34,358 nucleotides of DNA, taken from positions 1 through 34,358 of the forward strand of contig NZ_RAWB01000030.1 of NCBI RefSeq assembly GCF_003612055.1. The letters are read 5' to 3'. Positions 15 to 19,799 of this stretch are shown here, piece by piece. Both the position numbers and the translations under genes were made by a program. Source of the stretch: Corallococcus llansteffanensis. GTDB taxonomy: Bacteria; Myxococcota; Myxococcia; Myxococcales; Myxococcaceae. Under the pieces are notes generated by a model, which saw nothing but the letters and a program-made list of their open reading frames with translations, did not search any database and was not told where the DNA came from. The first letter of the stretch is position 1. Each line of letters begins with the position of its first letter.

Positions 15-60
15 GTGGGTCCTCCTGGCTTCGAACCAGGAGCCCATCGGTCATGGCTGG
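15..60 (-). pseudogene. tRNA-like 3' half (T-arm, CAT anticodon-like triplet)
   Basis: Read on the minus strand, this stretch has a CAT triplet, a short variable-loop-like segment, a T-stem CCTGG/CCAGG around the loop TTCGAAG, and a GG(A/G)CCCAC acceptor-like strand. That is the layout of the 3' half of a tRNA, most like a CAT-anticodon tRNA. No D-arm or 5' acceptor strand is found upstream, because the end of the neighbouring secreted-protein gene occupies that place. A second copy lies at 27049-27089 on the same strand and matches at 34 of 41 positions. It could be an old integration scar or a dispersed tRNA-derived repeat. It is unlikely to be a functional tRNA. Confidence 0.55.
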
Positions 61-924
61 TTAGAAAACCCAGTAGTTCACAGGGCCAAAATGGCCTTCG
101 GCGGCGTTGTAGGGGCCTGACCAGCCTGCCGGGCGCGGTGCATAGCTGAACGCCGCAAGGACGATGCGAGCAGCGCGGTTTGGAAAATAGGCAGGGCCAA
201 GGTTGTATTGGTTGTCAGGGGCCGCGGGGTGGCCGGCGATCCAGGTCCCATTGAGAAAGTAGTCCCAGCGCCACCCGCTCGAAGAGTTCCAGTATTGGAC
301 CTTCAAGGTGTATGCGTTTCCCAGGGGCGTCGACACATCCGTATGGACTGTCGGCGTATTGCTGGGTGCGCAGTTCGGCACACCGCTGGGCGGCGTTGCC
401 GTCGGATGCAGTGCCCCATCAAAGGCAGCCTCGTAGCACGGCCCCCACACATTGAAGTAGGACCGGCCAGAGTTGATGTCCTTTAGAATCCCGATCGCGC
501 GATAGTTGAACTCATTCTCATAGATGCCAAGGTTCCAGCCACAACCCGAGGCGCCAGCGACCTGGGTGCACGATGGCACCACCTGGACCTCCGCGATGAG
601 GCCGGTGGGGAATGAGATGGGATTCAGGGAGGCGAACAGGAAGCCATCTCCGTCTGGAAACTTCTTCTCGGCATGCAGATACAGCCGATTGTTGGACGTG
701 GCATAGCAGCCGTTGGGCCCCGCTGGCGCTGCGTTACAGTTCGGATCCCAGTTGTTGTAGACCCACCGCTGCGAGGCGTCCCAGATGGTATAGCCGGTAG
801 GGTAGTTGAACGTCCCGCCGACGCTGATTTGGGGGGCGCTCCAGTCCTCGAAGACAGCCGCGCTCGCGAGCGACGCGTACGTTGCGAAAGCTACGGCAGC
901 AAGTCTTGCATGAAGCTTTGACAT
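61..924 (-). CDS. secreted protein of unknown function, aromatic-rich beta fold
   Basis: 287 residues. I chose the ATG at 924 because it is followed by a clean Sec signal peptide (positive MSKLHAR start, hydrophobic core, cleavage after ASA near residue 22) and is preceded by GGAAGG. An in-frame ATG at 1080 would bury the signal peptide behind 52 odd residues. The mature protein is rich in Trp, Tyr, Phe, Asn and Gly and has several Cys (DPNCNA, NGCYA, SGCGW). This resembles secreted jelly-roll or laminin-G-like carbohydrate-binding folds, but I recognise no catalytic motif. It is a single gene followed directly by a tRNA-like fragment. The product is likely exported and may bind a polysaccharide; that is inference only. 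Confidence 0.75.
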   Translation of the reverse strand: MSKLHARLAAVAFATYASLASAAVFEDWSAPQISVGGTFNYPTGYTIWDASQRWVYNNWDPNCNAAPAGPNGCYATSNNRLYLHAEKKFPDGDGFLFASLNPISFPTGLIAEVQVVPSCTQVAGASGCGWNLGIYENEFNYRAIGILKDINSGRSYFNVWGPCYEAAFDGALHPTATPPSGVPNCAPSNTPTVHTDVSTPLGNAYTLKVQYWNSSSGWRWDYFLNGTWIAGHPAAPDNQYNLGPAYFPNRAARIVLAAFSYAPRPAGWSGPYNAAEGHFGPVNYWVF

Positions 925-1089
925 AGGCCTTCCGGGTTGACGTGTTTCGCTCAGTGCTCTGATTCCATGCGAAACAGGCTTTCCAGGATTCGACCCCTGG
1001 GTGAGGCCCCGAGTCAAACGGATACGTAGAGGGCGGAGGGAGCCCGGGACTTCTTCAGCCCGCCAGGTTGCTCCTGACACTCGAAGCCC

Positions 1090-1140
1090 GCCCCCTCCCG
1101 ACGTAGGGAGGGGGCTGTCCCCCTCCCAGCGGGAGCGGGG
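1090..1140 (-). terminator. two tandem GC hairpins after the PPC lipoprotein gene
   Basis: Positions 1090-1099 pair perfectly with 1106-1115 (10 bp, loop GACGTA). Next to it, 1119-1127 pairs with 1131-1140 with one bulged C. Both lie just beyond the stop of the minus-strand lipoprotein gene at 1143. There is no clear U-tract, so intrinsic termination is plausible but not certain. Confidence 0.5.
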
Positions 1141-1142
1141 CG

Positions 1143-1916
1143 CTACTTCGTGAGCGCGTCCACGCGGAGGTTGAAGGAGGTGACGTTGCCGACGCCCTCG
1201 ACCATCACGTAGGCCTTGCCCGCCACGGGGTTGATGATGGAGCAGACTGCGGGCAGCGTGGCGCTGTCCGCGGTGCAGTCCACCGCGCTCGGCACCGCTG
1301 GCGCGCTACCCTGGCGCACGTAGACCTTGAACGCGCCGCTTTGCCCGAACGACTGCGTGGCCGTGACCTGGAGCCGCTTCTTGCCCGCCGGCACGTCCAC
1401 CTCGTACACCGTCCGAGACAGTTGGTTGAGGTTCGGCGTCACCGTCGTCGCGAGCGCTAGCGGGTGGCTGTAGTACGCGTGCAGCGTGACGTTGGAGTAC
1501 GCCTCGTAGCCGTAGACGACGACGTAGTACGGCTGATCGTCCTCGACGCCGGTGGTGTAAACGCAGTTCTCCGTGTTGCCCACCGCGTCGCTCACGCAGT
1601 CGTAGTCGGTGAACGTGGGCTCGGCGTACCGCTTCACGTAGACGTCCGCGTCACCGGTCCCCCCGCGCAGCGTGAAGCTCAGCTTCTCCGCGGGCGCCGG
1701 GTTCACCAGGTAGAAGGTCTGCACCGAACCCAGCCCGCCCGACACCGTCACCGGATAGCCGTTGTAGATCGTCGTGCTGAGGGCGCTCGACTGCGACAGC
1801 AGCTCCGGGGCCACTTGCGGCGTCGCCTTGCCCTCGGCTCCGGGAAGGGGCTCGCCACAACCGATGCCGAACAGCGAGACCAGGGCCACTGCGGAAACCG
1901 CGCGGGTGAGGTTCAT
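1143..1916 (-). CDS. lipoprotein with two PPC (pre-peptidase C-terminal) domains
   Basis: 257 residues. The start at 1916 follows CGGAG six bases upstream and opens a lipoprotein signal peptide with lipobox LFGIGC (Cys20); the ATG at 1976 lacks this logic. Two PPC-type beta domains follow, about residues 45-150 and 155-256. The first shows GGTGDADVYVKR, a Cys pair and YYVVVYGYEAYSNVTLHAYY, which is the typical PPC ending; the second is more divergent. PPC domains usually sit at the C-terminus of secreted proteases and help secretion or binding. Here there is no catalytic domain, so this is a stand-alone surface PPC lipoprotein. Decayed PPC pieces lie at 5091-5193 and 13285-13439 on the same strand. 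Confidence 0.85.
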   Translation of the reverse strand: MNLTRAVSAVALVSLFGIGCGEPLPGAEGKATPQVAPELLSQSSALSTTIYNGYPVTVSGGLGSVQTFYLVNPAPAEKLSFTLRGGTGDADVYVKRYAEPTFTDYDCVSDAVGNTENCVYTTGVEDDQPYYVVVYGYEAYSNVTLHAYYSHPLALATTVTPNLNQLSRTVYEVDVPAGKKRLQVTATQSFGQSGAFKVYVRQGSAPAVPSAVDCTADSATLPAVCSIINPVAGKAYVMVEGVGNVTSFNLRVDALTK

Positions 1917-2061
1917 GGACGCTCCGTGTTGGGTGGAGCACGCAGGGTAGGGAGCGGCCGGTGCCGCGCGTGTCACAGTCCTGCAACTCGGTTTCTCGTT
2001 GGAAGGCCGTGACCTTCACGTTGCCGGGATGTTGCCGCTCGGAGGATGGCCACCGCCGCGT

Positions 2062-2811
2062 TCAGTTCGCGGCGGTGTTCCCGAGTCCCAGGAAGGCGCG
2101 GGTCCGCTCGTGCTGGGGGTGGGCTAGCACCTGGTCTGGCTTCCCCTCTTCGATGATGTGCCCGCCGTGCAGCACCAACACCCGGGAGGCCAGCGCCCGC
2201 GCGAAGCGCATCTCGTGCGTCACCGTCACCAGCGTCAGCCCGTCATCGCGCAGCCGCTCCAGCAGGGACACCAGGTCCGCCACCCGCTCCGGATCCAGCG
2301 CGCTCGTGGGCTCGTCCAGCAGCAGCGCCTCGGGCTCCATCGCCAGTGCCCGGGCAATGGCCACCCGCTGCTGCTCGCCTCCGGACAGCTCCGCGGGGTA
2401 CGCGCCCTCGCGGTGCGACATGCCCATCTTCGCCAGCAGCTCCCGGGCCCGCTCCGTCGCCTCCTTCACTCCCTGGCCCTTCACGTGGACCGGGGCTTCG
2501 ATGACGTTGCCCAGCGCCGTGCGGTGCGCGAACAGGTGCCACTGCTGGAACACGAAGCCCACCCGCCGCCGGATGTCCCACAGCCGCGAGGCCTGCGCCT
2601 GCCCGCGTCCGGGCTCGAGCGCGCAGTCCCCCACGCGCACCGAGCCTCCATCGAAGGACTCCAGCCCGTTGAGGCACCGCAGCAGCGTGCTCTTGCCGCC
2701 GCCCGAGGGCCCCACCAACGCCACCACCTCGCCCCGGGCGAAGGTGGCGCTGATGCCATCCAGCACCGTCCGGTCCGCGTAACGCTTGGTCAGCCCTCGC
2801 ACCTCGATCAT
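2062..2811 (-). CDS. polar amino-acid ABC transporter ATP-binding protein
   Basis: 249 residues, the normal size for the GlnQ/HisP family. Visible motifs are Walker A GPSGGGKST (34-42), Q-loop FQQ (88-90), signature LSGGEQQ (142-148), Walker B LLLDEP with Asp166/Glu167, D-loop SALD and switch His199 in VTHEM. The start at 2811 overlaps the stop of the upstream permease gene (ATGA), showing translational coupling. It energises the fused binding-protein/permease encoded next to it for import of an amino acid across the inner membrane. The exact substrate cannot be read from the sequence. Confidence 0.95.
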   Translation of the reverse strand: MIEVRGLTKRYADRTVLDGISATFARGEVVALVGPSGGGKSTLLRCLNGLESFDGGSVRVGDCALEPGRGQAQASRLWDIRRRVGFVFQQWHLFAHRTALGNVIEAPVHVKGQGVKEATERARELLAKMGMSHREGAYPAELSGGEQQRVAIARALAMEPEALLLDEPTSALDPERVADLVSLLERLRDDGLTLVTVTHEMRFARALASRVLVLHGGHIIEEGKPDQVLAHPQHERTRAFLGLGNTAAN

Positions 2812-4316
2812 GCCCGCTCCAACTTCGCCTCGAGCATTCGCGCGAGGCGGGACAAGGGGTAGCTCATCGCCAGGTACAGCACCGCGCACAGGGCTCCTGG
2901 CAACAACCAGCTCCGCACATCCACCGCGGTGATGGTCATGCGCTTGGTCAGCTCCACCACGGAGATCACCGACACCAGTGAGCTGTCCTTGAGCAAGGCG
3001 ATGAAGTCGTTGGTGGTTCCGGGCAGGGCCACGCGGAACGCCTGGGGAAGCACCACCCGCCTGAGCGCGAGCCGGGTCGGCATGCCCAGGGCCAGCGCCG
3101 CCTCCATCTGCCCCCGGGGCACCGCGAGCAGGCCCGCGCGATACACCTCCGCCTCGTAGGCCGCGTAGTTCAGCCCCAATCCCAGGATGGCCGCGCTGAG
3201 CGGACCCAGCCGCAGCACGCCCGCCAGTCCGTAATACAGGACATAGAGCTGCAAGAGCACCGGCGTGCCCCGGAGCAGCTCCACATAGGTCGTGGTGAAC
3301 ACACCCATCCACTTCGGCCCATACAGGCGCCCCAGCGCCAGCGCCATTCCCAGCGGGATGGCCAGGACCATGGCTCCCACCGAGACCCCCAGCGTCACCA
3401 GCGACGCCTGGAGAAAGAGCAGCACCTGGTTCCAGTCCAGGCGCGACGTGCTCGTATGGGACAGCACCTCGCGCGTCTGCGCCTCCGTCCACTCCACCAT
3501 GCGCTGCTCGGCGGCGGTGTCGATGCCCCAGCGGCGGAAGATCTCCCGCAGCTCCCCCGAGCGCGCGACGCGGCCCAGGGCCTCATCGAGCGCCTGGCGC
3601 AGGTCCTCCTCTCCAGGCCTCACGGCGATGGCGTAGTACCCCTCGGCCACGTCTCTGACGACTCGCAGGCCGGGGCGCTGCAGGCCGTAGCGCTGTGCGA
3701 TGATGTCGTCCATCAGCACGGCATCCAGCCGGCCCTGCTCCAGGTCGATGTATGGCTCCTGGACGCCCTCGTAGGGAATGGCCTGCGCCCCGCTGCCGCG
3801 CAGCAGCTCCCACGCCTGGGAGTTGGAGAGGGTGCCCACGCGGCGCCCGCGCAGCGACTCCAGCCCCGTCACGGTCGTGTCGTCCCGCCGTGCCATCAAT
3901 TGGAGATGGAAGAGATAGTAGGGGCGCGTGAAGAGCACCCGGCCCGCGCGCGTGGGGGTGATCTCCATGCCGTTCATCGCCACGTCGAAGGAGCCGCCCC
4001 GCTCCAGCGTGGGGATGAGGCTGGACCAGTCGTTCTGGACAAGCTCTGCGCGCACGCCCAGCTCGCGGCCCAGTGCGTCCGCCAGCTCCACCTCGAAGCC
4101 CCGGTACTGGCCCGGGTGTTCCGGGTCCTCCATGGCGTAGGGCTCTCCGCCCTGCGCATCCGCGCCCCAGCGGAGCACGCCCGCGCGCTGCACGCGTTCG
4201 AGCCCCGAACCCTCCTTCTGGCCGCAGGCCGTCAACCACACCAGCACGCCCGTTGCCAGGCAGGCGCGGGAGAACAGGGAGGCGCATCGCGGACGGAGGG
4301 GAGGTGGGTCGGTCAT
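2808..4316 (-). CDS. fused solute-binding protein/permease of amino-acid ABC importer
   Basis: 502 residues, the sum of two usual subunits. Residues 1-31 form a lipoprotein signal ending in LTAC (Cys31). Residues about 38-270 are a family-3 solute-binding domain (GVLRWGADAQGGEPY, GFEVELADALG, FDVAMNGMEITPTRA). Residues about 295-495 are a HisM/GlnP-type permease with several membrane helices, the ELLRGTPVLLQL motif and an EAA loop (EAALALGMPTRLALRRVVLPQ, 405-425) that contacts the ATPase. Such fusions are known in the GlnP type of Gram-positive bacteria. With the coupled ATPase gene this makes a compact two-gene importer. The Shine-Dalgarno is weak, so the exact start is less sure than the product. 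Confidence 0.93.
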   Translation of the reverse strand: MTDPPPLRPRCASLFSRACLATGVLVWLTACGQKEGSGLERVQRAGVLRWGADAQGGEPYAMEDPEHPGQYRGFEVELADALGRELGVRAELVQNDWSSLIPTLERGGSFDVAMNGMEITPTRAGRVLFTRPYYLFHLQLMARRDDTTVTGLESLRGRRVGTLSNSQAWELLRGSGAQAIPYEGVQEPYIDLEQGRLDAVLMDDIIAQRYGLQRPGLRVVRDVAEGYYAIAVRPGEEDLRQALDEALGRVARSGELREIFRRWGIDTAAEQRMVEWTEAQTREVLSHTSTSRLDWNQVLLFLQASLVTLGVSVGAMVLAIPLGMALALGRLYGPKWMGVFTTTYVELLRGTPVLLQLYVLYYGLAGVLRLGPLSAAILGLGLNYAAYEAEVYRAGLLAVPRGQMEAALALGMPTRLALRRVVLPQAFRVALPGTTNDFIALLKDSSLVSVISVVELTKRMTITAVDVRSWLLPGALCAVLYLAMSYPLSRLARMLEAKLERA

Positions 4317-4382
4317 GTCATGCAGGGCACAAGCAGCCTCACTCCCTCACTCCATAGAGCAGATGGGCCAGGTTCGGGTCAA

Positions 4383-4514
4383 TCAAGTGACGTCCCCGCC
4401 CACCAACCGACGGATGCCCTGGAGCTTGTCGGGATTGCGCGTGACGTAGATGGCGACGATGCGGTCCTCCTCGAAGGCGAACGCGGTGGCGGATCGAAGG
4501 CGTCCTCGGGAGTC
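4383..4514 (-). pseudogene. C-terminal remnant of an ECF41/SigJ-type sigma factor
   Basis: The minus-strand reading frame ending at the TGA at 4383-4385 encodes SATAFAFEEDRIVAIYVTRN followed by PDKLQGIRRLVGGDVT. The string I-x-A-I-Y-V-x-R-NPDKL is the hallmark end of the SnoaL-like C-terminal extension in ECF41 and SigJ-like sigma factors. No sigma-2 or sigma-4 region is present, so only about 35 residues survive. The remnant is in the same frame as the CMD gene upstream, beginning a few codons after that gene's stop. Since ECF41 sigma genes are typically linked to CMD genes, this looks like a deletion that removed most of the sigma gene. Confidence 0.75.
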
Positions 4515-4517
4515 ACC

Positions 4518-4979
4518 TCAGGCGGCTTCACTGCGCGGGGACACCGGATGGATGGACTGGAAGCCGATGGAGATCCGGTTCCAGATGTTGATCATCCCGA
4601 TGAGCAGGGTCAGCTTCACGCTCTCCTCCTCGCTGAAGTGCGCTCGCATCGCAGCATAATCCGCATCCGGCGCGTGCGTCTGGGAGACGAGCGTCAGGGC
4701 CTCGGTCCAGCCCAGGGCCGCCCGCTCGCGGTCGGTGAAGAGGGGCGACTCCCGCCAGGCGGACAGCAGGTAGATGCGCTCCTCGGTCTCCCCCTGCTTG
4801 CGGGCGTCGAGGGCGTGCATGTGGATGCAGAAGGCGCACCCATTGATCTGCGAGGCGCGGATCTTCACCAGCTCCGTCAGGCTCGCCTCGAGCCCGCTGC
4901 CCTGGACCTTCCCTGCGAAGTCGAGCATTTCCTTCATCACGGCCGGCGCGGCGGCAAAGGGATTCATCCTGGCCTTCAT
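4518..4979 (-). CDS. carboxymuconolactone decarboxylase family protein (AhpD-like)
   Basis: 153 residues from the ATG at 4979, which has GGAG about nine bases upstream; an in-frame ATG at 5060 adds 27 unlike residues. The CMD core is clear: an acidic residue in LTELVKIRASQINGC, then CAFCIHMH with redox Cys48/Cys51 and His55, and ARKQGETEERIYLLSAWRES. AhpD-like proteins reduce partners or peroxides through the CxxC pair; others are lyases. CMD proteins are common targets of ECF41 sigma factors, and a decayed ECF41 tail follows directly. The original regulator seems lost, so control here is unknown. Confidence 0.92.
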   Translation of the reverse strand: MKARMNPFAAAPAVMKEMLDFAGKVQGSGLEASLTELVKIRASQINGCAFCIHMHALDARKQGETEERIYLLSAWRESPLFTDRERAALGWTEALTLVSQTHAPDADYAAMRAHFSEEESVKLTLLIGMINIWNRISIGFQSIHPVSPRSEAA

Positions 4980-5090
4980 GGGTGCGGCTCCGTTTTTCGG
5001 GGCAGGAACATCCTGTCCGCCCCCAGGACGAATCACCCTCGCAGCCTGTGACATGGTCATTTCGGAAGGGATTTTCCCTCCTCGACACCT

Positions 5091-5193
5091 TCAGTAGGTC
5101 GCCTTCAGTGTCACGCCGGAATAGTCCGTGAAGCCCTTGATCATCACAGCGAGGCCTTCCCGGCCGGCACGGTGAGGGTCCAGTAGCGCGTGT
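5091..5193 (-). pseudogene. collapsed PPC-domain remnant
   Basis: Minus strand, reading downstream from the end of the 5203-5874 gene: a short frame gives RYWTLTVPAGKASL and stops. Shifted by one frame it continues VMIKGFTDYSGVTLKATY and stops at 5091. The first piece matches the opening strand of PPC domains (Y-T-x-x-VPAG). The second matches their closing strands (Y-V-M-x-x-G-x-x-x-YSGVTL). The central part of the domain is missing and the frames differ, so this is a deletion remnant and not a working gene. Confidence 0.6.
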
Positions 5194-5202
5194 CTGACAT
5201 TC

Positions 5203-5874
5203 TCAGGGCACCAGGAAGAGGCTGGCGCCGCTTGCCAGGCGCTTCCGGACCGCGCGCGCGTCGAGCTTGATGAGGACCTCGGGCTCCTCGTCCGTCTGTT
5301 CCTCCGCGGAGAGCGAATCCCACTCCTCCGTGTCGAGCACCTCCGGGACGACGAGCGTGCGCAGGTCAGGAGGCTTCTGCGACTTGATGACCTTGCGGCC
5401 GTTCATCACGTAGTGCGTGAGATGTTTCGCGTGCAGCTGGGACGCGTCGCCAAAGAGGGTGAGCCACGCGCCGGAGCCGGAGTCGACGAGCTCGGCCTCC
5501 ACCACGCCGGCCGCGTACGTCACGCTGTCCGCGGAGCGCGCGACCAGGGCCTCGCGCACGCGCAGCGTCCCGGTGCACACAAAGGAGAAGCCGACGCCCA
5601 CGAAGAGGTTCTGGCACGCGACGTCGCCGAACACGACGAGGACACCCTGGTCATGCCCGGCGAACTCGACGAGCATGTTGCCGTCGAGCTCCAGGGGCCC
5701 CTTCACGAGTGTGTAGGGATTAGGCGGCCGCCACGGCGCGGGGCCGGCCTGCTTCACCCCGTCGAGCTCGGCCCAGGGCTCCTCCACGTCGAGCGTGAGC
5801 AGGTCGTCGACGAACTCGCGGAGCGGCGCGGGAGCCGTCTGGAGCTGGGGCGGCGCGGTGGGCCTGGGAGGCAT
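5203..5874 (-). CDS. hypothetical protein with beta-repeat units
   Basis: 223 residues, no signal peptide and no membrane segment. The middle (about 58-150) has imperfect repeats of the form V-x-G-D-x-x-x-x-x-L-x-V (VLVVFGDVACQNLFVG, FVCTGTLRVREALV, AGVVEAELVD, WLTLFGDASQLHAKHL). This suggests a right-handed beta-solenoid, as in myxobacterial and streptomycete proteins made of 'GDL' turns. The C-terminus is acidic and then basic, with a hydrophobic end. I recognise no enzyme motif. Upstream is AAGGAA. It is a single gene, 130 bp after the secreted operon on the same strand. Confidence 0.8.
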   Translation of the reverse strand: MPPRPTAPPQLQTAPAPLREFVDDLLTLDVEEPWAELDGVKQAGPAPWRPPNPYTLVKGPLELDGNMLVEFAGHDQGVLVVFGDVACQNLFVGVGFSFVCTGTLRVREALVARSADSVTYAAGVVEAELVDSGSGAWLTLFGDASQLHAKHLTHYVMNGRKVIKSQKPPDLRTLVVPEVLDTEEWDSLSAEEQTDEEPEVLIKLDARAVRKRLASGASLFLVP

Positions 5875-6003
5875 GGTCGGGCTGTTCCTTCGAGGGAGGG
5901 TGCCGTTTCCTCCTGCCCGACATGCTCGGCGGGTGGCAATTCCTTTCTTCGGGGCTGCTCGCAGGTGGCCCGGGCCAATATGGCTTCTCTCCCGCCTCTA
6001 CGC

Positions 6004-6762
6004 CTACAGCCCCTCGTCCTTGCAGAGGTCTTCCTGCATCTCCGTCAGCGCCTTGTGCGCGCGCATCGGCTGGCAGGTGTTCGCCAGGTGGTAGGACGAA
6101 GCGCCCACCATCGCCGCCTTGAGCTTGGGACCCAGCGCGGACCAGCACGCGTCGAACGCCACCTTCTTCGCGCTGACCGCGCGCGGATCCGTCGCGGGCA
6201 ATCCGAGCGCGGCCACCACCGTCTCCGCGAGCCCGTCGTCCTTGCAGGCGCCGGCGTCCTTCTTGCCCCCCACGGCGGCGGCGAAGAGGGGCATTGGCAC
6301 GTAGGCGTGGTGTCCCTTGCGCACGGCGCGCGCGGCCTGGAGCGCTCCTTCGGAGCCCACGTCCGGGTTGAGCTCCAGGTACGTGTCGAGGCACTTGTCC
6401 CTGTCCAGGTCCAGGCAGTGCTCCAGGTCCTTCCGCGCGACCTCGTCCCGCGCGGTGGCGAAGCGCGGGGTCTGGGCGAGGAACGCGTACCGCTGTCCCA
6501 GCGTCCGAGCCTTCCGGGTGGCCGCGAACGGATCCTTGTCGTCGGAAGTGCCCGCCGCGGCCTGGGCGACCGCCGCGTCCGTGACCAGCGCCCGCCACGC
6601 GTCGGAGCGCGCGGCGGGAGCGACGTCCTCCGCGCGCTCCAGCAGCTCCGCCCACGCCTTCTGCGAGCCGAGGGCCTGGAGGTCTTCCAGGGTCGCGGGG
6701 GCGCGGGCCAGCGCCTCCGCCGAGCAGAGCGCCGCGAGCAGCACGATTCGCTGGAACCTCAT
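6004..6762 (-). CDS. secreted hypothetical protein, third gene of operon
   Basis: 252 residues. The start at 6762 overlaps the stop of the upstream gene (ATGA) and opens a signal peptide (MRFQRIVLLAALCSAEALA). The mature protein is mostly helical and Ala-rich, with an HCLDLDRDKCLDTYLELNP segment and paired Cys later (GACKDDG, FDACWSAL, ANTCQPM, DLCKD), consistent with disulfides outside the cytoplasm. I recognise no family. Coupled translation with the two upstream genes says the three products act together, probably in the periplasm or outside the cell. Confidence 0.85.
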   Translation of the reverse strand: MRFQRIVLLAALCSAEALARAPATLEDLQALGSQKAWAELLERAEDVAPAARSDAWRALVTDAAVAQAAAGTSDDKDPFAATRKARTLGQRYAFLAQTPRFATARDEVARKDLEHCLDLDRDKCLDTYLELNPDVGSEGALQAARAVRKGHHAYVPMPLFAAAVGGKKDAGACKDDGLAETVVAALGLPATDPRAVSAKKVAFDACWSALGPKLKAAMVGASSYHLANTCQPMRAHKALTEMQEDLCKDEGL

Positions 6763-7529
6763 GGGGAGAGCTTCCCGTCCAGGAACGCCGGCCCTTCGGC
6801 CGCGCCCTTGTTCGTGGTGGTGAAGGTGAGTGTGTCGCCCGCGCGCTCGAACCCGAGCGTCGGACCGAAGCGGCAGACCAGCGCCCTGGCGTCCTTCACC
6901 GAAGCGCAATGCTTCCCGGCCTGGGTCGCGAGCGGGGCGCAGGCGGCCCAGACGTCGAGCTCCGCCATCTGCTCGTCGCCGAAGCTCTTCCAGTCGAAGG
7001 TGAAGGAGGGCGCGACGCCGCAGCGCTTCTGGAGGGCGGCGACGGCCTCCGTGGCGCGCGCCGCGTACTTCTTCTCCAGATGGGGCCAGGGCTTCTTCTG
7101 GAACGCGGCGAGCTGGCCCGACTCTCGTTGCTGCTGGTGCGCGGCGAGCACTTCCCCGGCGGCGAACCTGTCCGTCGCCTCCTGGTTGAACTTCACGCGG
7201 AACGAGGGCGCCCCGGGAAGGGACGCCTCATGGACACCGTCCCGCTGGACGAGGACCGTGTAGTCGTCCCCGTGGTAGCGGGTCACGTAGTCGGCCCCGC
7301 GCGACAGCTTCTTCACGGTGCACTTCAGCGTGATGCCGTCGTGTTCGGAGTCGGTGCCGCGCACGCGGATCAAGGCTTCTGACGACGTGCGCGGCTCCAG
7401 GGTGACGACCTCCACGGTCTGGCCGTCATTGCCTCGGTAGACCTTGCTCGCCGCGGCCTCCAGGGACTGCGCCGCCGTCGTCGCGAGGACCGCCACCAGC
7501 GCCAGCGCGGCTGCAAGGGTCCGGGGCAT
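6759..7529 (-). CDS. secreted hypothetical protein with four-Cys domain, second gene of operon
   Basis: 256 residues from the ATG at 7529, two bases after the stop of the upstream gene. There is a signal peptide of about 20 residues (MPRTLAAALALVAVLATTAA). Residues about 25-130 form a beta-rich region. Residues about 150-256 repeat the domain of the first operon gene: Cys170, Cys197 and Cys208 have the same spacing (27 then 11) as Cys50, Cys77 and Cys88 there, with a shared CG-F-W-K-F block. The family is unknown. It looks like the same secreted domain with an added N-terminal module. Confidence 0.85.
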   Translation of the reverse strand: MPRTLAAALALVAVLATTAAQSLEAAASKVYRGNDGQTVEVVTLEPRTSSEALIRVRGTDSEHDGITLKCTVKKLSRGADYVTRYHGDDYTVLVQRDGVHEASLPGAPSFRVKFNQEATDRFAAGEVLAAHQQQRESGQLAAFQKKPWPHLEKKYAARATEAVAALQKRCGVAPSFTFDWKSFGDEQMAELDVWAACAPLATQAGKHCASVKDARALVCRFGPTLGFERAGDTLTFTTTNKGAAEGPAFLDGKLSP

Positions 7530-7531
7530 GG

Positions 7532-8011
7532 CTAGTTGAAGGCCTTCTCGAGGGTGGCCTTGGCGTTGTCGGTGATGTTCGCGTGGTCCTTGCCCAGGTG
7601 GTAGGTGAACACGCCCTTCTCCAGCGACATGTTGCGCAGCGTCGCGCCGTTGGAGCCGTCGTCCTTCTGGGTGGGCTTCACGCCCGAGAACAGGCACGCC
7701 ACGCTGGTCACCTTCTTGGAGATGGCCTTCTTGTACGCGGGGCGCTCACACATGGCCTCGATGCCCTGGAGGGCCCCCTCACAGTACGAACTGAAGCTCG
7801 TGCCGGACCACTCCTCCGACTTGAAGTTCTTGAAGTCGGACGTGACCGTGAGCTTGGTGCCGCACTTGTCGTTGGCGGCCTTCAAGGCGCCCTTGATATC
7901 CTCCTCGAACGAGGCCTTCGCCTCCTCCTGCGCGGGCTTGAGGTCTTCTTCCTCGGCGATGGCGGACGTCGACAGCAGGACCACGGCGGCGAAAACGTGC
8001 TTCAAACGCAT
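7532..8011 (-). CDS. secreted hypothetical protein with four-Cys domain, first gene of operon
   Basis: 159 residues. The start at 8011 has AAGGAAG eight bases upstream and opens a signal peptide ending in AIA-E (about residue 19). A charged helix (EEEDLKPAQEEAKASFEED) is followed by a compact domain with Cys50, Cys77, Cys88 and Cys106. It is paralogous to the C-terminal half of the next gene product. No known motif was found. Of the three operon genes it has the best ribosome binding site, so the promoter is probably in the 325 bp upstream. Confidence 0.87.
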   Translation of the reverse strand: MRLKHVFAAVVLLSTSAIAEEEDLKPAQEEAKASFEEDIKGALKAANDKCGTKLTVTSDFKNFKSEEWSGTSFSSYCEGALQGIEAMCERPAYKKAISKKVTSVACLFSGVKPTQKDDGSNGATLRNMSLEKGVFTYHLGKDHANITDNAKATLEKAFN

Positions 8012-8119
8012 GGAGAGCTTCCTTCTGGTTGGACAACGTCCAGAAGTCTCCATTTCGACACCCGGGAAAACAAGGGTGTCACGACTCTGGCCGCGTGTTG
8101 CCGCGCTGTGGCAATGAAC

Positions 8120-8293
8120 ACCGGGTGATGGGTGCACCGATTTGGAGCGGTAGCCGTCGGAATCCTCCGGTTCGCGGGAGCGATGCGCGAGCTGGAGGCT
8201 CTCGTCCTCGGCGAGCTGTTCCGTCTTGATGACGTTGCGGTCCGCCTTGAGTTGTTCCACCTGGCCTTCACGTAGGACGTGGAACTGGCCCAT
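8120..8293 (-). pseudogene. coding-like fragment, origin unknown
   Basis: In the 325-bp gap before the secreted operon, the minus strand encodes MGQFHVLREGQVEQLKADRN and continues with VIKTEQLAEDESLQLAHRSREPEDSDGYRS. G or C dominates third positions, as in real genes here, and the composition is like a folded charged protein. It then drifts into unlikely sequence and runs in frame into the secreted gene, which has its own start. It is probably a remnant of a lost gene. It may also hold the operon promoter. I do not recognise the family. Confidence 0.35.
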
Positions 8294-8336
8294 CTTCGGG
8301 GCCAGGCTCTGAAGCGGGCCCCGGCCCGGACACCCC

Positions 8337-9137
8337 ATGAGACTGCCGATATTCCAGATTGATGCCTTCACCGACAGGGTGTTTGGCGGCAACCCGGCCG
8401 CGGTCTGCCCGTTGGCAAGATGGCTGCCCGACACCGTGATGCAGCGAATCGCGATGGAGAACGCGGTCGCCGAAACCGCCTTCTTCGTCCCACGGGGGCA
8501 GGATTACGAGATCCGCTGGTTCACTCCCGAGATCGAGATGGACTTGTGCGGGCACGCCACGCTGGCCGCCGCGCATGTGATCGCGCGGCATCTCGATCCG
8601 TCCGTCGAATCGATCCGGTTCCATTCGAACAGCGGCGAGTTGTTCGTCCGCATCGACGCGGAGTCCATCACCCTGGATTTCCCGTCGCGCAAGCCGGAGC
8701 CTGCGCAGGCGCCGGCGATCATCCTGGAGGCGTTTCATTTCAAGCCGACCGAAGTTCTGAAATCCCGGGACTACGTCCTGGTGTTCGAGGACGAAGACAC
8801 CATCAGGCGCCTCACTCCCGACCGGAACCTGCTCGACCGCATCAACCTCGATCCGGGGGGTGTTGTTGCAACCGCCAGGGGACGCGCCGTCGATTTCGTA
8901 TCGCGATACTTCACGCCTCAGGCGAGCATCTTCGAAGACCCTGTCACCGGCTCCGCGCATTGTTCGCTCGTGCCCTACTGGGCCGAAAAGCTGGGCAAGG
9001 AATCGATGGTCGCGATGCAGTTGTCGCCGAGAACCGGCACGCTGCACTGCCGGCAACAGAACGACCGTGTGCTGCTGGCCGGCAAGGCCGTCACGTATCT
9101 CGAAGGGCACCTGACGATCCACCCTGACGCCTGGTGA
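8337..9137 (+). CDS. PhzF family isomerase/epimerase
   Basis: 266 residues, typical length. Conserved features: F-x-x-x-x-x-GNPAAV (16-23), the general acid/base Glu46 in NAVAETAFF, the DLCGHATLAAAH loop near 80-90, and EDPVTGSAHCSL near 200. PhzF enzymes isomerise a double bond in phenazine synthesis (trans-2,3-dihydro-3-hydroxyanthranilate). Most genomic relatives act on other small metabolites, and no phenazine genes are seen here. It is a cytosolic monocistronic gene with only a weak GGA before the start, converging on the M61 gene. Confidence 0.92.
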   Translation: MRLPIFQIDAFTDRVFGGNPAAVCPLARWLPDTVMQRIAMENAVAETAFFVPRGQDYEIRWFTPEIEMDLCGHATLAAAHVIARHLDPSVESIRFHSNSGELFVRIDAESITLDFPSRKPEPAQAPAIILEAFHFKPTEVLKSRDYVLVFEDEDTIRRLTPDRNLLDRINLDPGGVVATARGRAVDFVSRYFTPQASIFEDPVTGSAHCSLVPYWAEKLGKESMVAMQLSPRTGTLHCRQQNDRVLLAGKAVTYLEGHLTIHPDAW

Positions 9138-9202
9138 AGCGGGGCAGACCCTGGCGGGCCCACACAGGCCGGAGCGATACCGCTTGCCCGCGGGCAGGGG
9201 TG

Positions 9203-11182
9203 TCAGTCGCGTGGCTTCAGGATTTCATCCAGGATCGCCGGTGTGCCCTCGACCCGCCGCAGCCGGGGGTAGCGCAACCCCTCATGCCATGGAATGAGGG
9301 CGGAACGGGTGGCCGTGCCCTGGCGCCAGGAGAGCCGCAAGGGCTCCTGGTGCGCGGTGGCCTTGACGGCGTCCTTCAGTCGTTGCGCGTCGTAGGGGCT
9401 CCCGTTCACGGCCGTCACCACCGCGCCGGGCAGCAGGCCCACCTTGAAGGCAGGCCTTTCCCACTCCACCCGGAGCACCTTGCCGTCCTTCGCGAGCGTC
9501 ATTCCGAGGGAGTCGCCGAGGTCCACGTTCCCGCTCGCCGCCTCGGCCCGCCGGATGGCGTCCGTGGGTTCCTCGCTCCAGGCGAGCGTGTAGCCGCCTT
9601 GCGTGATTCCACCCAGGGGCGGGGCGTCGCGCGTCTCTTCAATCCGGGAGCGGAAGAAGCCTGACCAGTCATGGGGCAGGATGTCATTGAGCGTGGTGAC
9701 GATGTCTTCCAGCGTGTACGTCATCGTCACCTGGCTGCCCGCGCGTACGCCGAAGAACGCGCGAGCGAAGTCATCCAGCGACTTGCGGCCGCCACTGCGC
9801 TCCCGGAGCAGCGTGTCGACCTCCAGCCAGATCAACGCGCCCTCGGAGTAGGCATCGAACATGTCGCGCTGCCAGCCCCGCCAGGAGAGCGGCTTGCGGC
9901 GCTGCACGACGGCGTCGTTTGTCACGTCCCGGAGCGGGCGCCAGCTCCGGCCGGGGCGGCTGGCCATGGCCGCCGCGGTCGCGGCCCAGTCGTCGAGCGC
10001 GTCTTCCCGCGTCCACAACCCCGCCCGGGTGGTGAGCACGTCCTGCCAGTAGGACGTCAATCCCTCGAAGACCCAGAGCAGTGAGTCGCGCTCCGGCGTG
10101 TTGAAGTCCGGCGTCCACATCTCTGCGGGGCGGCGGAACAGGCCGTTCCACGAATGAACGAACCCATGCGCCAGACGTCCACGGTGTTCGGGCCTGTCCT
10201 TCCAGGTCGTGAAGAAGTCGGCGGGCAGGGCGTTCTCACCCGCGCGGAGGTGTTCGAAGTAGCTGGGGCCGAAGCCGTCCGCCAGCCAGACCATCAGGTC
10301 GTAATGGTCGTAGTGTTGCGAGCCGAAGAGCCGGTAGGCCTGTTGCACGAGTGCCTGGTAGCCCCGGACGAATCCGGGAGGTGGTTCGAGCCCCGCGGCG
10401 TCGTCGGCGACGATGTTCACGTGGACCGGGACGGGCTCGTCGCTCAACAGGATGCGTTTGAAGGCACGGCCGGCAATCACAGGTGAGTCGACCAGCGTGT
10501 CCAGCGTCACCGGCTGGAACCGGACCTCACCGCCATCCCGTTGGGCGACGGTCAGCGGCGAGGCGAACTCCCAGGTGGGCGGCAGCTTCACGCTGGCCAC
10601 ATAGGTGATGCGCCGGGCGTAATGGCCCGCGGGATACAGCACCAGGTGGTGCCATTGCAGGTCCAGCATCGTGGACGTGGCCACCACCGGGCCCACGCGT
10701 GGCTCCGTGGCGCCAAGGAACTGGGAGTGCACGTCGATGGACGTCACGCCCGCGGGGATGTCGATGTGGAAGGCCGCGACCTGGACGGCGTCGCGGGTCC
10801 AGGCAATGACTCTCTTTCCGGCCTGGACCTTCAGCCCCGCGAGTCCTTCCAGTTGACCGGTGGGCCCATGGTCCCCAGGAAGCCACTGCGGGAAGAACAG
10901 CGTCAACCGCCTTCCGGGCGCGACCGGGATGGTTTGCTTGACGCGGAAGAGCCCGCGCGCCGTGTCGGTGGCGTCGACGTGCAAGCGGATGGTGCCGGGG
11001 AAGGGCGTGTCACGCGGCGCCTCGATGGGCGGCGGCATGGGCGCGGGTTGGGGCAGCGGCCAGGACTGGGATGCGGAGGATGCCTGAGCGTGCGCCGCCG
11101 TCGAAACCATCCAGACGGCCACCGTGGCGACAACGCATGGCATGACCCTGACGCTTCGAGGATGGGCGGGAGAGGCCGGCAT
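9203..11182 (-). CDS. M61 glycyl-aminopeptidase-like protein with PDZ domain, catalytic Glu missing
   Basis: 659 residues, the usual M61 length. A signal sequence ends near AAHAQ (about residue 33); an internal ATG at residue 14 is an alternative start. An N-terminal beta domain is followed by the peptidase core and a C-terminal PDZ domain (about 545-640, SLGMTLAKDGKVLRVEW, AFKVGLLPGAVVTAVNG). The zinc site is normally HExxH-x-WN. Here it reads H339-G-F-V-H343-S-W-N, because codon 10163-10165 is GGG. The third ligand, Glu373 in FEGLTSYW, is kept. Zinc may still bind, but the general-base glutamate is absent, so the protein may be a pseudo-peptidase. It is divergent from a LysR gene 75 bp away. 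Confidence 0.9.
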   Translation of the reverse strand: MPASPAHPRSVRVMPCVVATVAVWMVSTAAHAQASSASQSWPLPQPAPMPPPIEAPRDTPFPGTIRLHVDATDTARGLFRVKQTIPVAPGRRLTLFFPQWLPGDHGPTGQLEGLAGLKVQAGKRVIAWTRDAVQVAAFHIDIPAGVTSIDVHSQFLGATEPRVGPVVATSTMLDLQWHHLVLYPAGHYARRITYVASVKLPPTWEFASPLTVAQRDGGEVRFQPVTLDTLVDSPVIAGRAFKRILLSDEPVPVHVNIVADDAAGLEPPPGFVRGYQALVQQAYRLFGSQHYDHYDLMVWLADGFGPSYFEHLRAGENALPADFFTTWKDRPEHRGRLAHGFVHSWNGLFRRPAEMWTPDFNTPERDSLLWVFEGLTSYWQDVLTTRAGLWTREDALDDWAATAAAMASRPGRSWRPLRDVTNDAVVQRRKPLSWRGWQRDMFDAYSEGALIWLEVDTLLRERSGGRKSLDDFARAFFGVRAGSQVTMTYTLEDIVTTLNDILPHDWSGFFRSRIEETRDAPPLGGITQGGYTLAWSEEPTDAIRRAEAASGNVDLGDSLGMTLAKDGKVLRVEWERPAFKVGLLPGAVVTAVNGSPYDAQRLKDAVKATAHQEPLRLSWRQGTATRSALIPWHEGLRYPRLRRVEGTPAILDEILKPRD

Positions 11183-11218
11183 GATCCGCGTCGTATCCCG
11201 GACCCGTCTTGCCGAAAA

Positions 11219-11233
11219 TTCCGAAGTCTGGAA
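11219..11233. promoter_or_regulatory. candidate LysR-type operator (TTCC-N7-GGAA)
   Basis: This 15-bp dyad, TTCCGAAGTCTGGAA, lies in the 75-bp gap between the divergent M61 and LysR genes. It contains a T-N11-A core at 11220/11232, the form bound by LysR-type regulators. Position and symmetry support the call; no second copy was found to confirm it. Confidence 0.4.
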
Positions 11234-11257
11234 GCCTGGGTTCGAGGAAATCGAACG

Positions 11258-12169
11258 ATGCTCCCCCGGATCAACCTGGACATGGATGTCTTGCGGACGT
11301 TCGTGACGGCCTTCGAGCTGGGCAGCTTCGCCCGGGCCGCCGCACGGGTGGGCCGGTCTCCGTCAGCGGTGAGCTCCCAGCTGCGCAAGCTGGAGGAGCA
11401 GGTGGGCCGCGCGCTGGTCGAACGCTCCGGGCGCGGGCTGGTCCTGACCGAAGCGGGAGAGGTGCTGCTGGGCTGCGCGCGGCGGATCCTCGAACTGAAT
11501 GATCAGACCGTGGACAGCTTGCGAGGCAGCGAGCTGGAGGGCGAGGTCCGCCTGGGGTTGCCGCAGGACTTCGCCGAAACCTGGCTGCCCCGGGTGCTCA
11601 GCACCTTCGCGCGCGCGCATCCGGCGGTGCGCATCGAGGTGCGCACCGAGCGCAACGCCCACCTCGTCAACCACGTGATGACGGGCAAGCTGGACCTCGC
11701 GCTTGCCTGGAGCGGTGGGGCTCGCGGCTGCAGTGAACGCATCGCTGAACTGCCGCTCGTGTGGATTGGTCAGCCTGGCTGGCAGGCTACGGGAAGCCGC
11801 AGCCAGCCGCTGCCGCTCATCGCCTTCGAAGCGCCCTGCGTGTTCCGGGAGGCCTGCACGACTGCCTTGGACCGGAAGGGGCTCGCCTGGCGGATCGCGT
11901 TCGCGAGCCCGAGCCTCGCGGGCCTGTGGGCGGCGGCCGAGGCGGGGCTGGGCGTGACGCTGCGAACGGCCTTCGGCCTGCCGAAGACGCTGGCCGTGCT
12001 GGAGCCCGGCGCCTCGGGCCTGCCCGTGCTCGGGAGCATTCCGGTGCACCTGCTCAGGGCTGAACGGGAGCCGAGCAAGACCGTGGCCCAACTGGCCGGC
12101 ATCCTGCGTGAATCGCTCGCGCAGGAGCTGACGACACCCCGGCGGGCGCGGCCGCGCGGCAGGGACTGA
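11258..12169 (+). CDS. LysR family transcriptional regulator
   Basis: 303 residues. The start at 11258 has GAGGAAA about eight bases upstream, and the protein begins in the typical LysR way (LDMDVLRTFVTAFELGSFARAAARV). The winged helix-turn-helix covers about residues 8-66 (SAVSSQLRKLEEQVG, LTEAGEVLL). The effector domain follows from about 92 (GEVRLGLPQDFAE). The C-terminus ends in an Arg-rich tail. LysR regulators often control the divergent gene and themselves, so the adjacent M61 gene is the likely target; the inducer is unknown. Confidence 0.95.
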   Translation: MLPRINLDMDVLRTFVTAFELGSFARAAARVGRSPSAVSSQLRKLEEQVGRALVERSGRGLVLTEAGEVLLGCARRILELNDQTVDSLRGSELEGEVRLGLPQDFAETWLPRVLSTFARAHPAVRIEVRTERNAHLVNHVMTGKLDLALAWSGGARGCSERIAELPLVWIGQPGWQATGSRSQPLPLIAFEAPCVFREACTTALDRKGLAWRIAFASPSLAGLWAAAEAGLGVTLRTAFGLPKTLAVLEPGASGLPVLGSIPVHLLRAEREPSKTVAQLAGILRESLAQELTTPRRARPRGRD

Positions 12170-12225
12170 CGCCCGTTCGCGCCGAGGCGGACCAGGAGAC
12201 GTTCGAGAAGCTGCTCAACAGGCTC

Positions 12226-13251
12226 TCAGGCCTTCACCGCCTCGATGATGCTGGCCCCGCTTCGGGTGGGGATGATGCGCTCCACCTTCCAGGAGGTGGC
12301 TGAGAGCAGCGCCCGGAACTCGTCCTCGGTGCGCTCGCGCCCGTCCGCGAGCACCAGCATGTTGAGGTCGATCAGGTGGGAGGAGTCTGGATTCCGGTTG
12401 TCCGGAATCACCAGCTCCAGCACGAAGAGCCGGGCGCCAGAAGGGGCCGAGGCGTGGAGCTGGCGCAGGAGGGTGGTGGAGGCCTCATCATCCCAGTCAT
12501 GGAGGATGTGCTTGAGCAGGTAGGCTTCGGCGGAGGGAATGCCGGGATCGAAGAAGCTCCCGGCGACCACGTCCACCCGGCTGGCGAGGCCTCGGGACTC
12601 CAGCACCGTCTTCGCGCCTTCAGCGACCTGGGGCAGGTCGAAGAGGATGCCCCGGCAGGAGGGATGGGCGCGCAGCACCTGCGCCAGCAGCTCGCCGTGG
12701 CTTCCTCCAATGTCCGCCACGCGGGCGAAGGGGGCGAAGTCGATGTGGTGCGTCAGTTCGCTGGCCACCAGTCCGGACACATTGCCCATGGCCTGGGCGA
12801 AGTGCTCCCCCTCCTCGGGATTCCGGGCGAAGTGCCCCCAGATGTCGGAGCCGAGGGCGGCTTGCACCGGGGACCTTCCCGTGCGAACCGCCTCGGAGAG
12901 CAGCCCCCAGGGCAACCAGTGCGACTTGTCGGTCAGGAGGATGGCCACCTCCCGCAGCGAGCCAGGGACGTTCGAGCGCAGCCCTTCGCCCATCGGAGTC
13001 AGGCAATAGGTCCGCTCGGAGACGGCCTCGAGGATGCCGGCGGTGACGCCGCCTCGCATCAGCCGGAACAAGGCGCCCGGGTGGACGCCGAGCTCGGCCG
13101 CCAGCGAGTCACTGTCGCGGGCCCCTCCCGCGAGCAGGTCCGCGATTCCCAGACGGGCCACGGTGCCAATGATCTGGGTGATGAAGAAGCCAGTGATGGC
13201 CGAATGAAGTTGCTGCGTGGGAGACGCATTCGTGTCGGAGATGATCTTCAT
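12226..13251 (-). CDS. SAM-dependent O-methyltransferase (Methyltransf_2 type)
   Basis: 341 residues, normal length. The N-terminal dimerisation/winged-helix part (about 10-105) carries FITQIIGTVARLGIADLLA and ELGVHPGALFRLMR. The SAM fold begins with ADIGGSHGE (179-187), then FDLPQV near 204, and the catalytic His in LKHILHDWDDE (His251). This family methylates hydroxyl groups of aromatic or polyketide compounds (acetylserotonin or tetracenomycin type). No biosynthetic cluster surrounds it, so the substrate is unknown. The Shine-Dalgarno is weak. Confidence 0.93.
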   Translation of the reverse strand: MKIISDTNASPTQQLHSAITGFFITQIIGTVARLGIADLLAGGARDSDSLAAELGVHPGALFRLMRGGVTAGILEAVSERTYCLTPMGEGLRSNVPGSLREVAILLTDKSHWLPWGLLSEAVRTGRSPVQAALGSDIWGHFARNPEEGEHFAQAMGNVSGLVASELTHHIDFAPFARVADIGGSHGELLAQVLRAHPSCRGILFDLPQVAEGAKTVLESRGLASRVDVVAGSFFDPGIPSAEAYLLKHILHDWDDEASTTLLRQLHASAPSGARLFVLELVIPDNRNPDSSHLIDLNMLVLADGRERTEDEFRALLSATSWKVERIIPTRSGASIIEAVKA

Positions 13252-13284
13252 GCCACGAGTCTAATCCGCGCAGCAGGCTGTGAA

Positions 13285-13439
13285 TCAGTAGAACGTGCGT
13301 CCAAGCACGGTGACGTCGTTGACAGCCGTTTCGCCATACACAGACACGTACCAGGTCCCCATGCGCGGGTAGAAGATGGAGCAATACTCAAGGAGGAGGG
13401 ACTGCTCTCCGACGTCCTCGGGGCCGGCCCGGCACGTGC
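13285..13439 (-). pseudogene. PPC-domain C-terminal remnant
   Basis: Between the two methyltransferase genes, the minus strand encodes EQSLLLEYCSIFYPRMGTWY followed by VSVYGETAVNDVTVLGRTFY and a stop at 13285. The C-S-I-F-Y-P-x-x-GTWYV-x-x-x-G-x-x-x-x-x-D-V-T-V pattern matches the last third of a PPC domain. The frame upstream is only the out-of-frame shadow of the neighbouring gene. It is therefore a tail cut off from a lost secreted protein, probably by rearrangement next to 13440. Confidence 0.5.
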
Positions 13440-14654
13440 TCAAGCGCTCCGCGACGCGATGAGCGCGAGATTGCGCGGAGACAGGCGTGGATCGAAGAGC
13501 TGGAGGAGCTCGACCTGGAAGCCCAGCTCCTCCAGGAGGATGGCGCGATCCAGCAGGAGCACGACCTCCAACGCCCTCGCGAAGCGGTCCCTCAGCAGAT
13601 GGCAGAGCAGGAGATCCCGTGTCTCGGCGCGAACGGACACCTCGAAGGCATCCAGCTCGGCGTCCGTCATGCCGGGGTCGAGGCCCAGGCGCTCCAGGCG
13701 GTCGCGCACGTAGACGGCGAAGCGTCCGGCATAAAGCGTCCGGGGCGCGTCTCCTGCCCTCACGAAGCCGCGCTCGGGAAAGCGCCGCCTCGACAGGAGA
13801 TCGAACGCGAAGCGCCACGCGTACACCTGCTTCATCCGCGCGAACTCCACCTCGGTCTTGTGATGCCGTCCCCGCGTCGTCAGCGCCAGGGCATGCGGGG
13901 TGAAGGGCAGCGGATGCGCGCCCCCGAAGCGGGAGACGGGGTAATCCCGCGGGGCCTCCAGCTTGTCGTAGCAGCAGCCGATGTTCAGGATGAAGCCCGC
14001 CCCCTGGCTCTTGCGGATCTGCGTGAGGGCGAGCGGCCCGCAGGTGTGCAGACCGAGCGAGGCCCGGTCCCGGCCGGAGAAGAGCGGATCGATCCGCGGT
14101 TGGAGCCCGTCCTCGACGGAGGCCTGGATGAAACACAGGGTGTCCCCGCCCGGAGGGTGGGTTCTCGTCAGCCACCGCCGGCCCTTGTCCTGCAGCGCGG
14201 CGTCCCGATCGATGCTGTGGAAGGTCCACCCGAACGTCCGCGCACAGAGGCGTGCGAGATGGCCCATGCCGCCGCCGATATCGACCGCCTGGCGGATGAA
14301 GCGCGTCCTTGGCGCGAGCAGGGCGAGCACCCGCTCGAGCTCGTGGGTCTTCTTGGCGCTCAGTCCCTGCGTCTCCGCGACCGTCAGCGCGTGAACGCCC
14401 TCGTGCCAGGGCAGCGCCGTCAGTTCCTGGAGCGCGCCCAGGAGCGCGCCCAGGGACGGAGGTGGGACGCCTACGAGCGCCCCCTGGTCCAGCCGCCGCT
14501 CGCCCGCTTCATCGAGCGACCGGGCATAGGCCAGCCAGTCCTCGGGATAGTCGGCGCCGGACCCGGGCCAGCCCTGGAGGATGGAGCGGGACCAGAGCGG
14601 GGACCAGGGCCGGAGTTGGTGCGTGAGCGCCTCGAGTCGCGCCTGGAAGTCCAT
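13440..14654 (-). CDS. METTL25/RRNAD1-like methyltransferase
   Basis: 404 residues, cytosolic. The motif order matches the eukaryote-type METTL25/RRNAD1 family: GLSAKKTHEL (97-105), SAM motif I VDIGGGMGHLAR (124-135), LGLHTCGPLA (200-209) and NIGCCYDKL (224-232), followed by a Pro-rich YPVSRFGG segment. The cysteine-rich N-x-G-CCY element is distinctive. Family members are predicted methyltransferases; the bacterial substrate is not known to me. A perfect hairpin with an AGG loop lies just before the start (14657-14675). It follows the beta-lactamase-like gene by 36 bp and may be co-transcribed with it. Confidence 0.85.
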   Translation of the reverse strand: MDFQARLEALTHQLRPWSPLWSRSILQGWPGSGADYPEDWLAYARSLDEAGERRLDQGALVGVPPPSLGALLGALQELTALPWHEGVHALTVAETQGLSAKKTHELERVLALLAPRTRFIRQAVDIGGGMGHLARLCARTFGWTFHSIDRDAALQDKGRRWLTRTHPPGGDTLCFIQASVEDGLQPRIDPLFSGRDRASLGLHTCGPLALTQIRKSQGAGFILNIGCCYDKLEAPRDYPVSRFGGAHPLPFTPHALALTTRGRHHKTEVEFARMKQVYAWRFAFDLLSRRRFPERGFVRAGDAPRTLYAGRFAVYVRDRLERLGLDPGMTDAELDAFEVSVRAETRDLLLCHLLRDRFARALEVVLLLDRAILLEELGFQVELLQLFDPRLSPRNLALIASRSA

Positions 14655-14656
14655 GT

Positions 14657-14675
14657 CGGCGCATCCTATGCGCCG
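14657..14675 (-). promoter_or_regulatory. hairpin holding the Shine-Dalgarno of the METTL25-like gene
   Basis: CGGCGCAT and ATGCGCCG (8 bp) form a perfect stem with a 3-nt loop that reads AGG on the minus strand. The loop is about ten bases from the ATG at 14654, so the likely ribosome-binding bases sit in the loop tip. Folding of this element could limit translation of the methyltransferase. Confidence 0.45.
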
Positions 14676-14690
14676 CCGCTCCGCCGGGTT

Positions 14691-17444: not shown

Positions 17445-17566
17445 ACCGTGATGCTCTGAAGCAGCCCCCCGGTGTTCCGGACTTCGCCGTGGCCCTGCAC
17501 ACCGTTGCCACCGCCGCGGCGGGGACGGTGCCGCAGCCGCGCAGACGATCGTTCTGGGGAACGGTC

Positions 17567-19721: not shown

Positions 19722-19799
19722 GCCAGTCTTCCGGGAGCGCTCAGGCCAGGGAGAAGAGAGTCCCTCTCCGTCTTATGCTCTTCCCCAGTCAGGACAGGC

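What the first reader, a model, noticed from the sequence alone, without database searches (positions are those of the whole stretch)
15..60. Two related tRNA 3'-half copies 27 kb apart on the same strand
Blocks 15-55 and 27049-27089 agree at 34 of 41 positions and share a CAT triplet, a T-arm and an acceptor-like strand, but neither has a 5' half. tRNA 3' ends are classic integration sites, so the intervening accessory DNA could be an old island. The divergence between copies argues for an ancient event or a dispersed tRNA-derived repeat.
Basis: partly seen in the sequence, partly recalled or inferred. Interest (0 to 1): 0.55.

Follow-up and report, generated by a model that had tools for sequence, protein, structure and literature searches.

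The report
Relic tRNA integration-site copies
The two blocks are decayed, displaced halves of one tRNA gene, most likely left behind when mobile DNA elements inserted into that gene long ago in an ancestor of this bacterium; such landing sites are a known kind.

Summary
In detail: 15-55 and 27049-27089 agree at 34 of 41 positions and neither is a tRNA gene. Both are 3' halves, on the - strand, of one CAT-anticodon tRNA, tRNA-Ile2, whose intact copy lies on contig C1014. Block 1 abuts a conserved chromosomal anchor at the distal end of the tRNA-Ile2 locus. Block 2 has an integrase relic on its left (26980-27042) and an element arm on its right (to 27167): the order seen at the inner junction of tandem elements in Archangium violaceum Cb vi76. 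So this is an ancient tRNA insertion hotspot with at least two relic attachment sites, not a dispersed repeat. That the 27 kb between them ever moved as one element is doubtful: no mobility gene was detected and its genes are scattered in relatives. By-product: in related elements the integrase frame runs through the tRNA-derived core into an excisionase-like domain, as in phage Mx9 Int; insertion would split this predicted fusion. Known kind; modest interest.

The parts
15..60 (-). Block 1: displaced, decayed 3' half of tRNA-Ile2(CAT); distal attachment relic next to the chromosomal anchor (anchor on own contig C842)
   Evidence: 34 of 44 identical to the intact own tRNA over 16-59; ortholog beside the anchor in G002; 13-base overlap of C842 with window bases 1-13
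61..26976 (.). Accessory DNA between the two relics; ordinary genes, no mobility gene detected
   Evidence: Pfam on 17 ORFs of this stretch; homologs inside the tRNA-anchor stretch of relatives for 16689 of the 27048 bases left of block 2
26977..27045 (+). Relic of a tyrosine-recombinase (integrase) active-site box, reading NHDLRPTLETLLLKTRLPLAEVR
   Evidence: Best HMM match of the window, E 6e-4, 0.015 with another model; 26980-27037 86% over 58 nt to an integrase gene, E 7.6e-13
27049..27093 (-). Block 2: displaced 3' half of tRNA-Ile2(CAT), inner attachment core
   Evidence: 39 of 44 identical to the intact own tRNA over 27050-27093
27094..27167 (+). Relic of the element arm that lies between core and excisionase gene in intact elements
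   Evidence: 27041-27167 87.5% to the G012 inner copy; aligned with 11 other copies
27168..34358 (.). DNA on the tRNA side of block 2; origin mixed, 31215-34358 not found inside the locus of any relative examined
   Evidence: 3441 of 7265 bases right of block 2 with homologs in the locus of relatives

Best explanation
tRNA-Ile2(CAT) is an insertion hotspot. Elements with a tyrosine recombinase (Int) carry a copy of the tRNA 3' half at the attachment site in the int gene. Int recombines that copy with the chromosomal tRNA; the element's copy restores the tRNA, and the old 3' half is displaced downstream as a fragment. Shown here: both blocks are such fragments of this tRNA, block 1 sits at the distal chromosomal anchor, block 2 is flanked by an integrase relic and an element arm, and intact and tandem versions of this layout exist in relatives. 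Inferred: two successive insertions (an older one displaced block 1, a later one in tandem displaced block 2), then loss of int, xis and most element DNA and long gene turnover. Inferred also: C842, the window and C1014 belong to one locus, in the order C842 - window - gap - C1014.
For: Identity to one intact own tRNA. Anchor beside block 1 in G002 and, by a 13-base overlap, in the own genome. Integrase relic at 26980-27042 touching block 2. Arm on the other side. The same int-core-arm order at the inner junction of a tandem in G062, and an intact 5.4-kb element in G061. In 26 of 96 family genomes tRNA 3' fragments end at the same boundary; 20 rows in 19 genomes share a contig with the intact tRNA and all 20 are on its strand and 3' side (read by eye).
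Against: No contig joins the window to C1014. Block 1 lacks an arm on its right. No intact integrase or excisionase gene remains in the window. The integrase relic is short (23 residues). Intact elements found here are a few kb long, not 27 kb. 31215-34358 has no counterpart inside the locus of the relatives examined. Block 2 is not found as a junction in the other genus genomes.
Confidence: 0.85

Rival explanations
1. One simple island: block 1 and block 2 are the two ends of a single 27-kb element that entered once.
For: Direct repeats 27 kb apart with an integrase relic at the inner side of block 2; genes of the stretch vary in position among relatives.
Against: No intact tRNA at either end; arm right of block 2 points to a second element on the tRNA side; no mobility gene in the 27 kb among the proteins tested; window genes turn up in different orders in the loci of G002 and G005.
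Confidence: 0.12
2. A dispersed tRNA-derived repeat family with many copies.
For: Two similar partial tRNA copies without 5' halves.
Against: Three places in the genome at up to 3 mismatches, one the intact tRNA; both copies at one locus; flanks explained by integration. Strongly decayed copies would be missed by this pattern.
Confidence: 0.02
3. A structured RNA, such as COG3610-DE, that only resembles a tRNA arm.
For: Weak Rfam match of block 1 to RF03066, 18.2 bits.
Against: The gathering score is 73.5 bits; no match over it in the genome; identity to this one tRNA and the flanking layout explain more.
Confidence: 0.01

Closest known systems
Genomic islands in tRNA genes (Islander, PMC4383910, abstract and passages seen)
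   Same: An intact tRNA, its displaced 3' fragment on the same strand and 3' side, boundary near the anticodon, tandem arrays
   Different: Here no integrase gene remains, the intact tRNA is on another contig, and the fragments are decayed
Temperate Myxococcus phages Mx8 and Mx9 (review PMC6070905, passages; records)
   Same: Attachment site inside the integrase gene; Mx9 Int is the closest listed phage integrase family (32.8% over 72% of the query) and carries an excisionase-like domain
   Different: Other tRNA target; related elements are a few kb long with no phage structural gene noticed; Mx8 Int shows no such domain
Mobile elements carrying SitA toxin genes in myxobacteria (PMC5562445, passages)
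   Same: Three tRNA-Ile2 elements in relatives carry a SitA5-family gene
   Different: None found among the window proteins tested; SitA5 genes are common in the family (64 of 96 genomes), so a specific link is unproven

Membership tests
tRNA-gene integration hotspot / genomic island | Fragment of a tRNA gene that exists intact in the same genome | tested here: met
tRNA-gene integration hotspot / genomic island | Fragment on the same strand and 3' side of the intact tRNA, on one replicon | tested here: inconclusive
   Different contigs in the own genome; met in 19 of 19 relatives where both share a contig
tRNA-gene integration hotspot / genomic island | Integrase gene in the island | tested here: not met
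   Only a 23-residue relic at 26977-27045; no integrase among the proteins tested
tRNA-gene integration hotspot / genomic island | Stretch occupied variably among relatives | tested here: met
   Anchor-to-tRNA distance from about 1.1 kb to 62 kb
Mx8/Mx9-type integration (attachment site inside int) | int frame runs through the tRNA-derived core | tested here: met
   In relatives; in the window only a relic
Mx8/Mx9-type integration (attachment site inside int) | Integration and excision observed | not testable with these tools
   Needs an experiment
COG3610-DE RNA (RF03066) | Score above the gathering cut-off | tested here: not met
   18.2 against 73.5 bits; none over cut-off in the genome

The most novel reading that the evidence does not exclude
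In this element family the circular form encodes an integrase-linker-excisionase fusion whose linker is the tRNA-derived attachment core plus arm. Insertion splits the fusion: Int keeps a short tail read from the tRNA antisense strand, and the excisionase part is stranded at the far end. Insertion would thus switch the direction of the recombinase by cutting its own gene, at several tRNA targets (Ile2 and Arg here, Gly in phage Mx9).
Probability: 0.45. Interest if true: 0.6.

Novelty: new member of a known kind. Interest (0 to 1): 0.38.

Why it matters
It turns an odd pair of tRNA-like blocks into a record of mobile DNA entering one tRNA gene, and it shows that tRNA-Ile2 is a recurrent landing site in this bacterial family, with some compact elements intact enough to test. 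The predicted split of an integrase-excisionase fusion on insertion would be a simple, testable way to control the direction of integration.

Tried and rejected
COG3610-DE RNA: far below cut-off. Dispersed repeat. Phage records similar to the att regions: the listed matches with annotation were mostly tRNA genes. The integrase C-terminal fragment found nothing in phages; the full integrase found Mx4, Mx9 and others. Tail matches of the integrase model next to intact tRNAs were discarded, because that tail is the antisense of the tRNA itself; so C1014 gives no independent integrase relic. The position-wise identity of the G002 block 1 (20 of 44) is an artefact of an indel; the gapped match to the tRNA is 82% over 62. 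tblastn of integrases against the window also gave weak matches elsewhere at E 4e-5 to 1, with low identity in GC-rich reading frames; I set them aside because none has DNA-level support in the same call. A defence-system search of ten window proteins gave one weak match.

The genus is not settled: G010 is a single contig of 10080619 bases, which I recall as the size of Corallococcus coralloides DSM 2259; no call confirmed it.

Literature: searches listed no paper that I recognised as describing this hotspot or the fusion; that is absence in this library and for these words only. The 1996 Mx8 and 2003 Mx9 papers were not held and the 1999 one was not looked up; they are known here through reference lists and the review.

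Full report
1. Observation. Blocks 15-55 and 27049-27089 match at 34 of 41 positions; the best chance match in 200 simulated windows was 27, and no other place in the window exceeds 24. No tRNA gene is called in the window. Both blocks read as the 3' half of a CAT-anticodon tRNA on the - strand. The window is the whole contig C478 of a 10.5-Mb draft in 1244 contigs; a 25-nt pattern with up to 3 mismatches finds only these two blocks and one intact tRNA, on C1014. That tRNA is 34 of 44 identical to block 1 and 39 of 44 to block 2. ARAGORN calls it tRNA-Met, but the best E. coli matches are annotated tRNA-Ile (all 8 rows shown, of 6185 records); with a CAT anticodon that is tRNA-Ile2.

2. The distal end. 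In relative G002, contig C677 carries the ortholog of block 1 and the flank that the window lacks: genes that look like a cupin, a cold-shock protein and an LTXXQ-like protein (names recalled from the sequences, not from a call). This anchor has a match at E 0 in all 16 genus genomes, the own contig C842 included. C842 begins with 13 bases that overlap the start of the window. In 8 of 16 genus genomes (G001, G005, G006, G010, G011, G012, G014, G015) anchor and tRNA lie on one contig, about 41 to 62 kb apart; in the other 8 they lie on different contigs. Outside the genus the distance is about 1.1 kb in G039, 2.3 in G063, 2.4 in G045, 5.4 in G061, 5.9 in G022, 9.9 in G062 and 29 in G071. In G022, G061, G063 and G045 a copy of the tRNA 3' half lies just past the cupin gene, the place that block 1 has in G002. 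So block 1 marks the distal chromosomal end of the locus.

3. The inner relic. Left of block 2, 26977-27045 reads NHDLRPTLETLLLKTRLPLAEVR, the best match of the whole window to a model of 11 integrases (E 6e-4; 0.015 with a narrower model and more sequence). In DNA, 26980-27037 is 86% identical over 58 nt to an integrase gene of G091 (E 7.6e-13), and 79-82.5% over 62-63 nt to five others; apart from this stretch and the two blocks, nothing in the window matches these seven loci at E 1e-3. Right of block 2, 27094-27167 aligns with the arm of 11 other copies, one of them a relic on the own contig C578. G071 has two extra cores.

4. Intact relatives. G061 has a 5.4-kb element: core, arm, xis, other genes, and int reading into the tRNA. 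Two full integrases (G071, G062) score as PF00589 and one of them (G071) as phrog_1; the G012 xis product scores as TIGR01764 and HTH_17. Copies of the core within one genome share an exact stretch of 31 to 70 nt in 7 of 8 pairs; in 6 of these 7 the identity ends at the anticodon stem, in G045 earlier; the 8.5-kb copy of G071 shares no 25-mer. Across the family, 28 fragment rows in 26 of 96 genomes end at query positions 84-90; 20 rows in 19 genomes share a contig with the intact tRNA, and all 20 are on its strand and its 3' side (table read by eye; E limit 1e-8, so a lower bound, and block 2 itself is not listed at that limit).

5. The DNA around the relics. Of the 27048 bases left of block 2, 16689, and of the 7265 right of it, 3441, have homologs of at least 80% identity inside the tRNA-anchor stretch of at least one of 8 relatives; for G006, G010, G012 and G014 only part of that stretch was fetched. 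Pfam on 20 window proteins gives ordinary genes (an ABC transporter, PhzF-like, M61 peptidase, methyltransferases, a beta-lactamase-fold protein, sigma factors, LysR, EamA) and no integrase; NCBIfam on 10 gives nothing. Not every ORF was tested. In G010 the modules lie at many separate loci. I take the 27 kb as an old accretion zone rather than one mobile unit.

6. A by-product. At the element-side attachment copy the int frame runs through core and arm into the excisionase-like HTH. Of 9 copies with core and xis recognisable, 7 have both in one frame, and 6 of these have no stop between (G012, G062, G022, G071 at 11 kb, and G091 and G060 at tRNA-Arg); G061 has one stop; G045 and the 8.5-kb copy of G071 are out of frame. 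G063 has no xis there, and two more arms without a recognised core (G012, G062) were left out of this count. These copies are related, so they are not independent events, and GC-rich DNA has few stops. The predicted fusion in G062 is 563 residues. Phage Mx9 Int is one protein of 548 residues with PF00589 and, at 489-537, HTH_17 (TIGR01764 at 489-536); between them, at about residues 464-478, its DNA is 97.6% identical over 42 nt to a tRNA-Gly gene. Mx8 Int shows no such domain. The review says that attP of Mx8 lies inside int and that integration gives int a new 3' end (PMC6070905, passages); Islander notes integrases that extend across attP (PMC4383910, passages).

7. Verdict. Relic attachment sites at a tRNA hotspot: well supported. 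Two successive insertions: inferred. One 27-kb mobile island: doubtful. Split integrase-excisionase fusion: a sequence prediction, untested.

Noticed in passing
L020 7900-7985 (own contig C578): A relic of the same element arm, with only the last bases of the core, elsewhere in the own genome.
   Followed up: partly
L019 6645-8135; L110 634-1956; L114 11451-12944: Between tRNA-Ile2 and the anchor in G022, G063 and G045 lies a gene that scores as SitA5-family polymorphic toxin, with TreTu_C or AHH C-terminal domains in two of them.
   Followed up: partly
L078, L080, L109, L118; L099 and L102: Related integrases end at tRNA-Arg(GCG) in G060 and G091, and weaker relatives lie near tRNA-Pro(GGG) in two genomes.
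   Followed up: partly
window 61-34358: Most genes of the window have 80-97% relatives at many separate chromosomal loci in other species of the genus, singly or in small groups, as if the locus collects and sheds genes.
   Followed up: partly
L131 2707-4353 (phage Mx9): The deposited Mx9 integrase holds an excisionase-like HTH at its C-terminus, with a tRNA-Gly-like stretch between it and the catalytic domain.
   Followed up: partly
L117 14664-15146: An ORF in the G062 element holds near-identical tandem repeats of about 20 residues.
   Followed up: no
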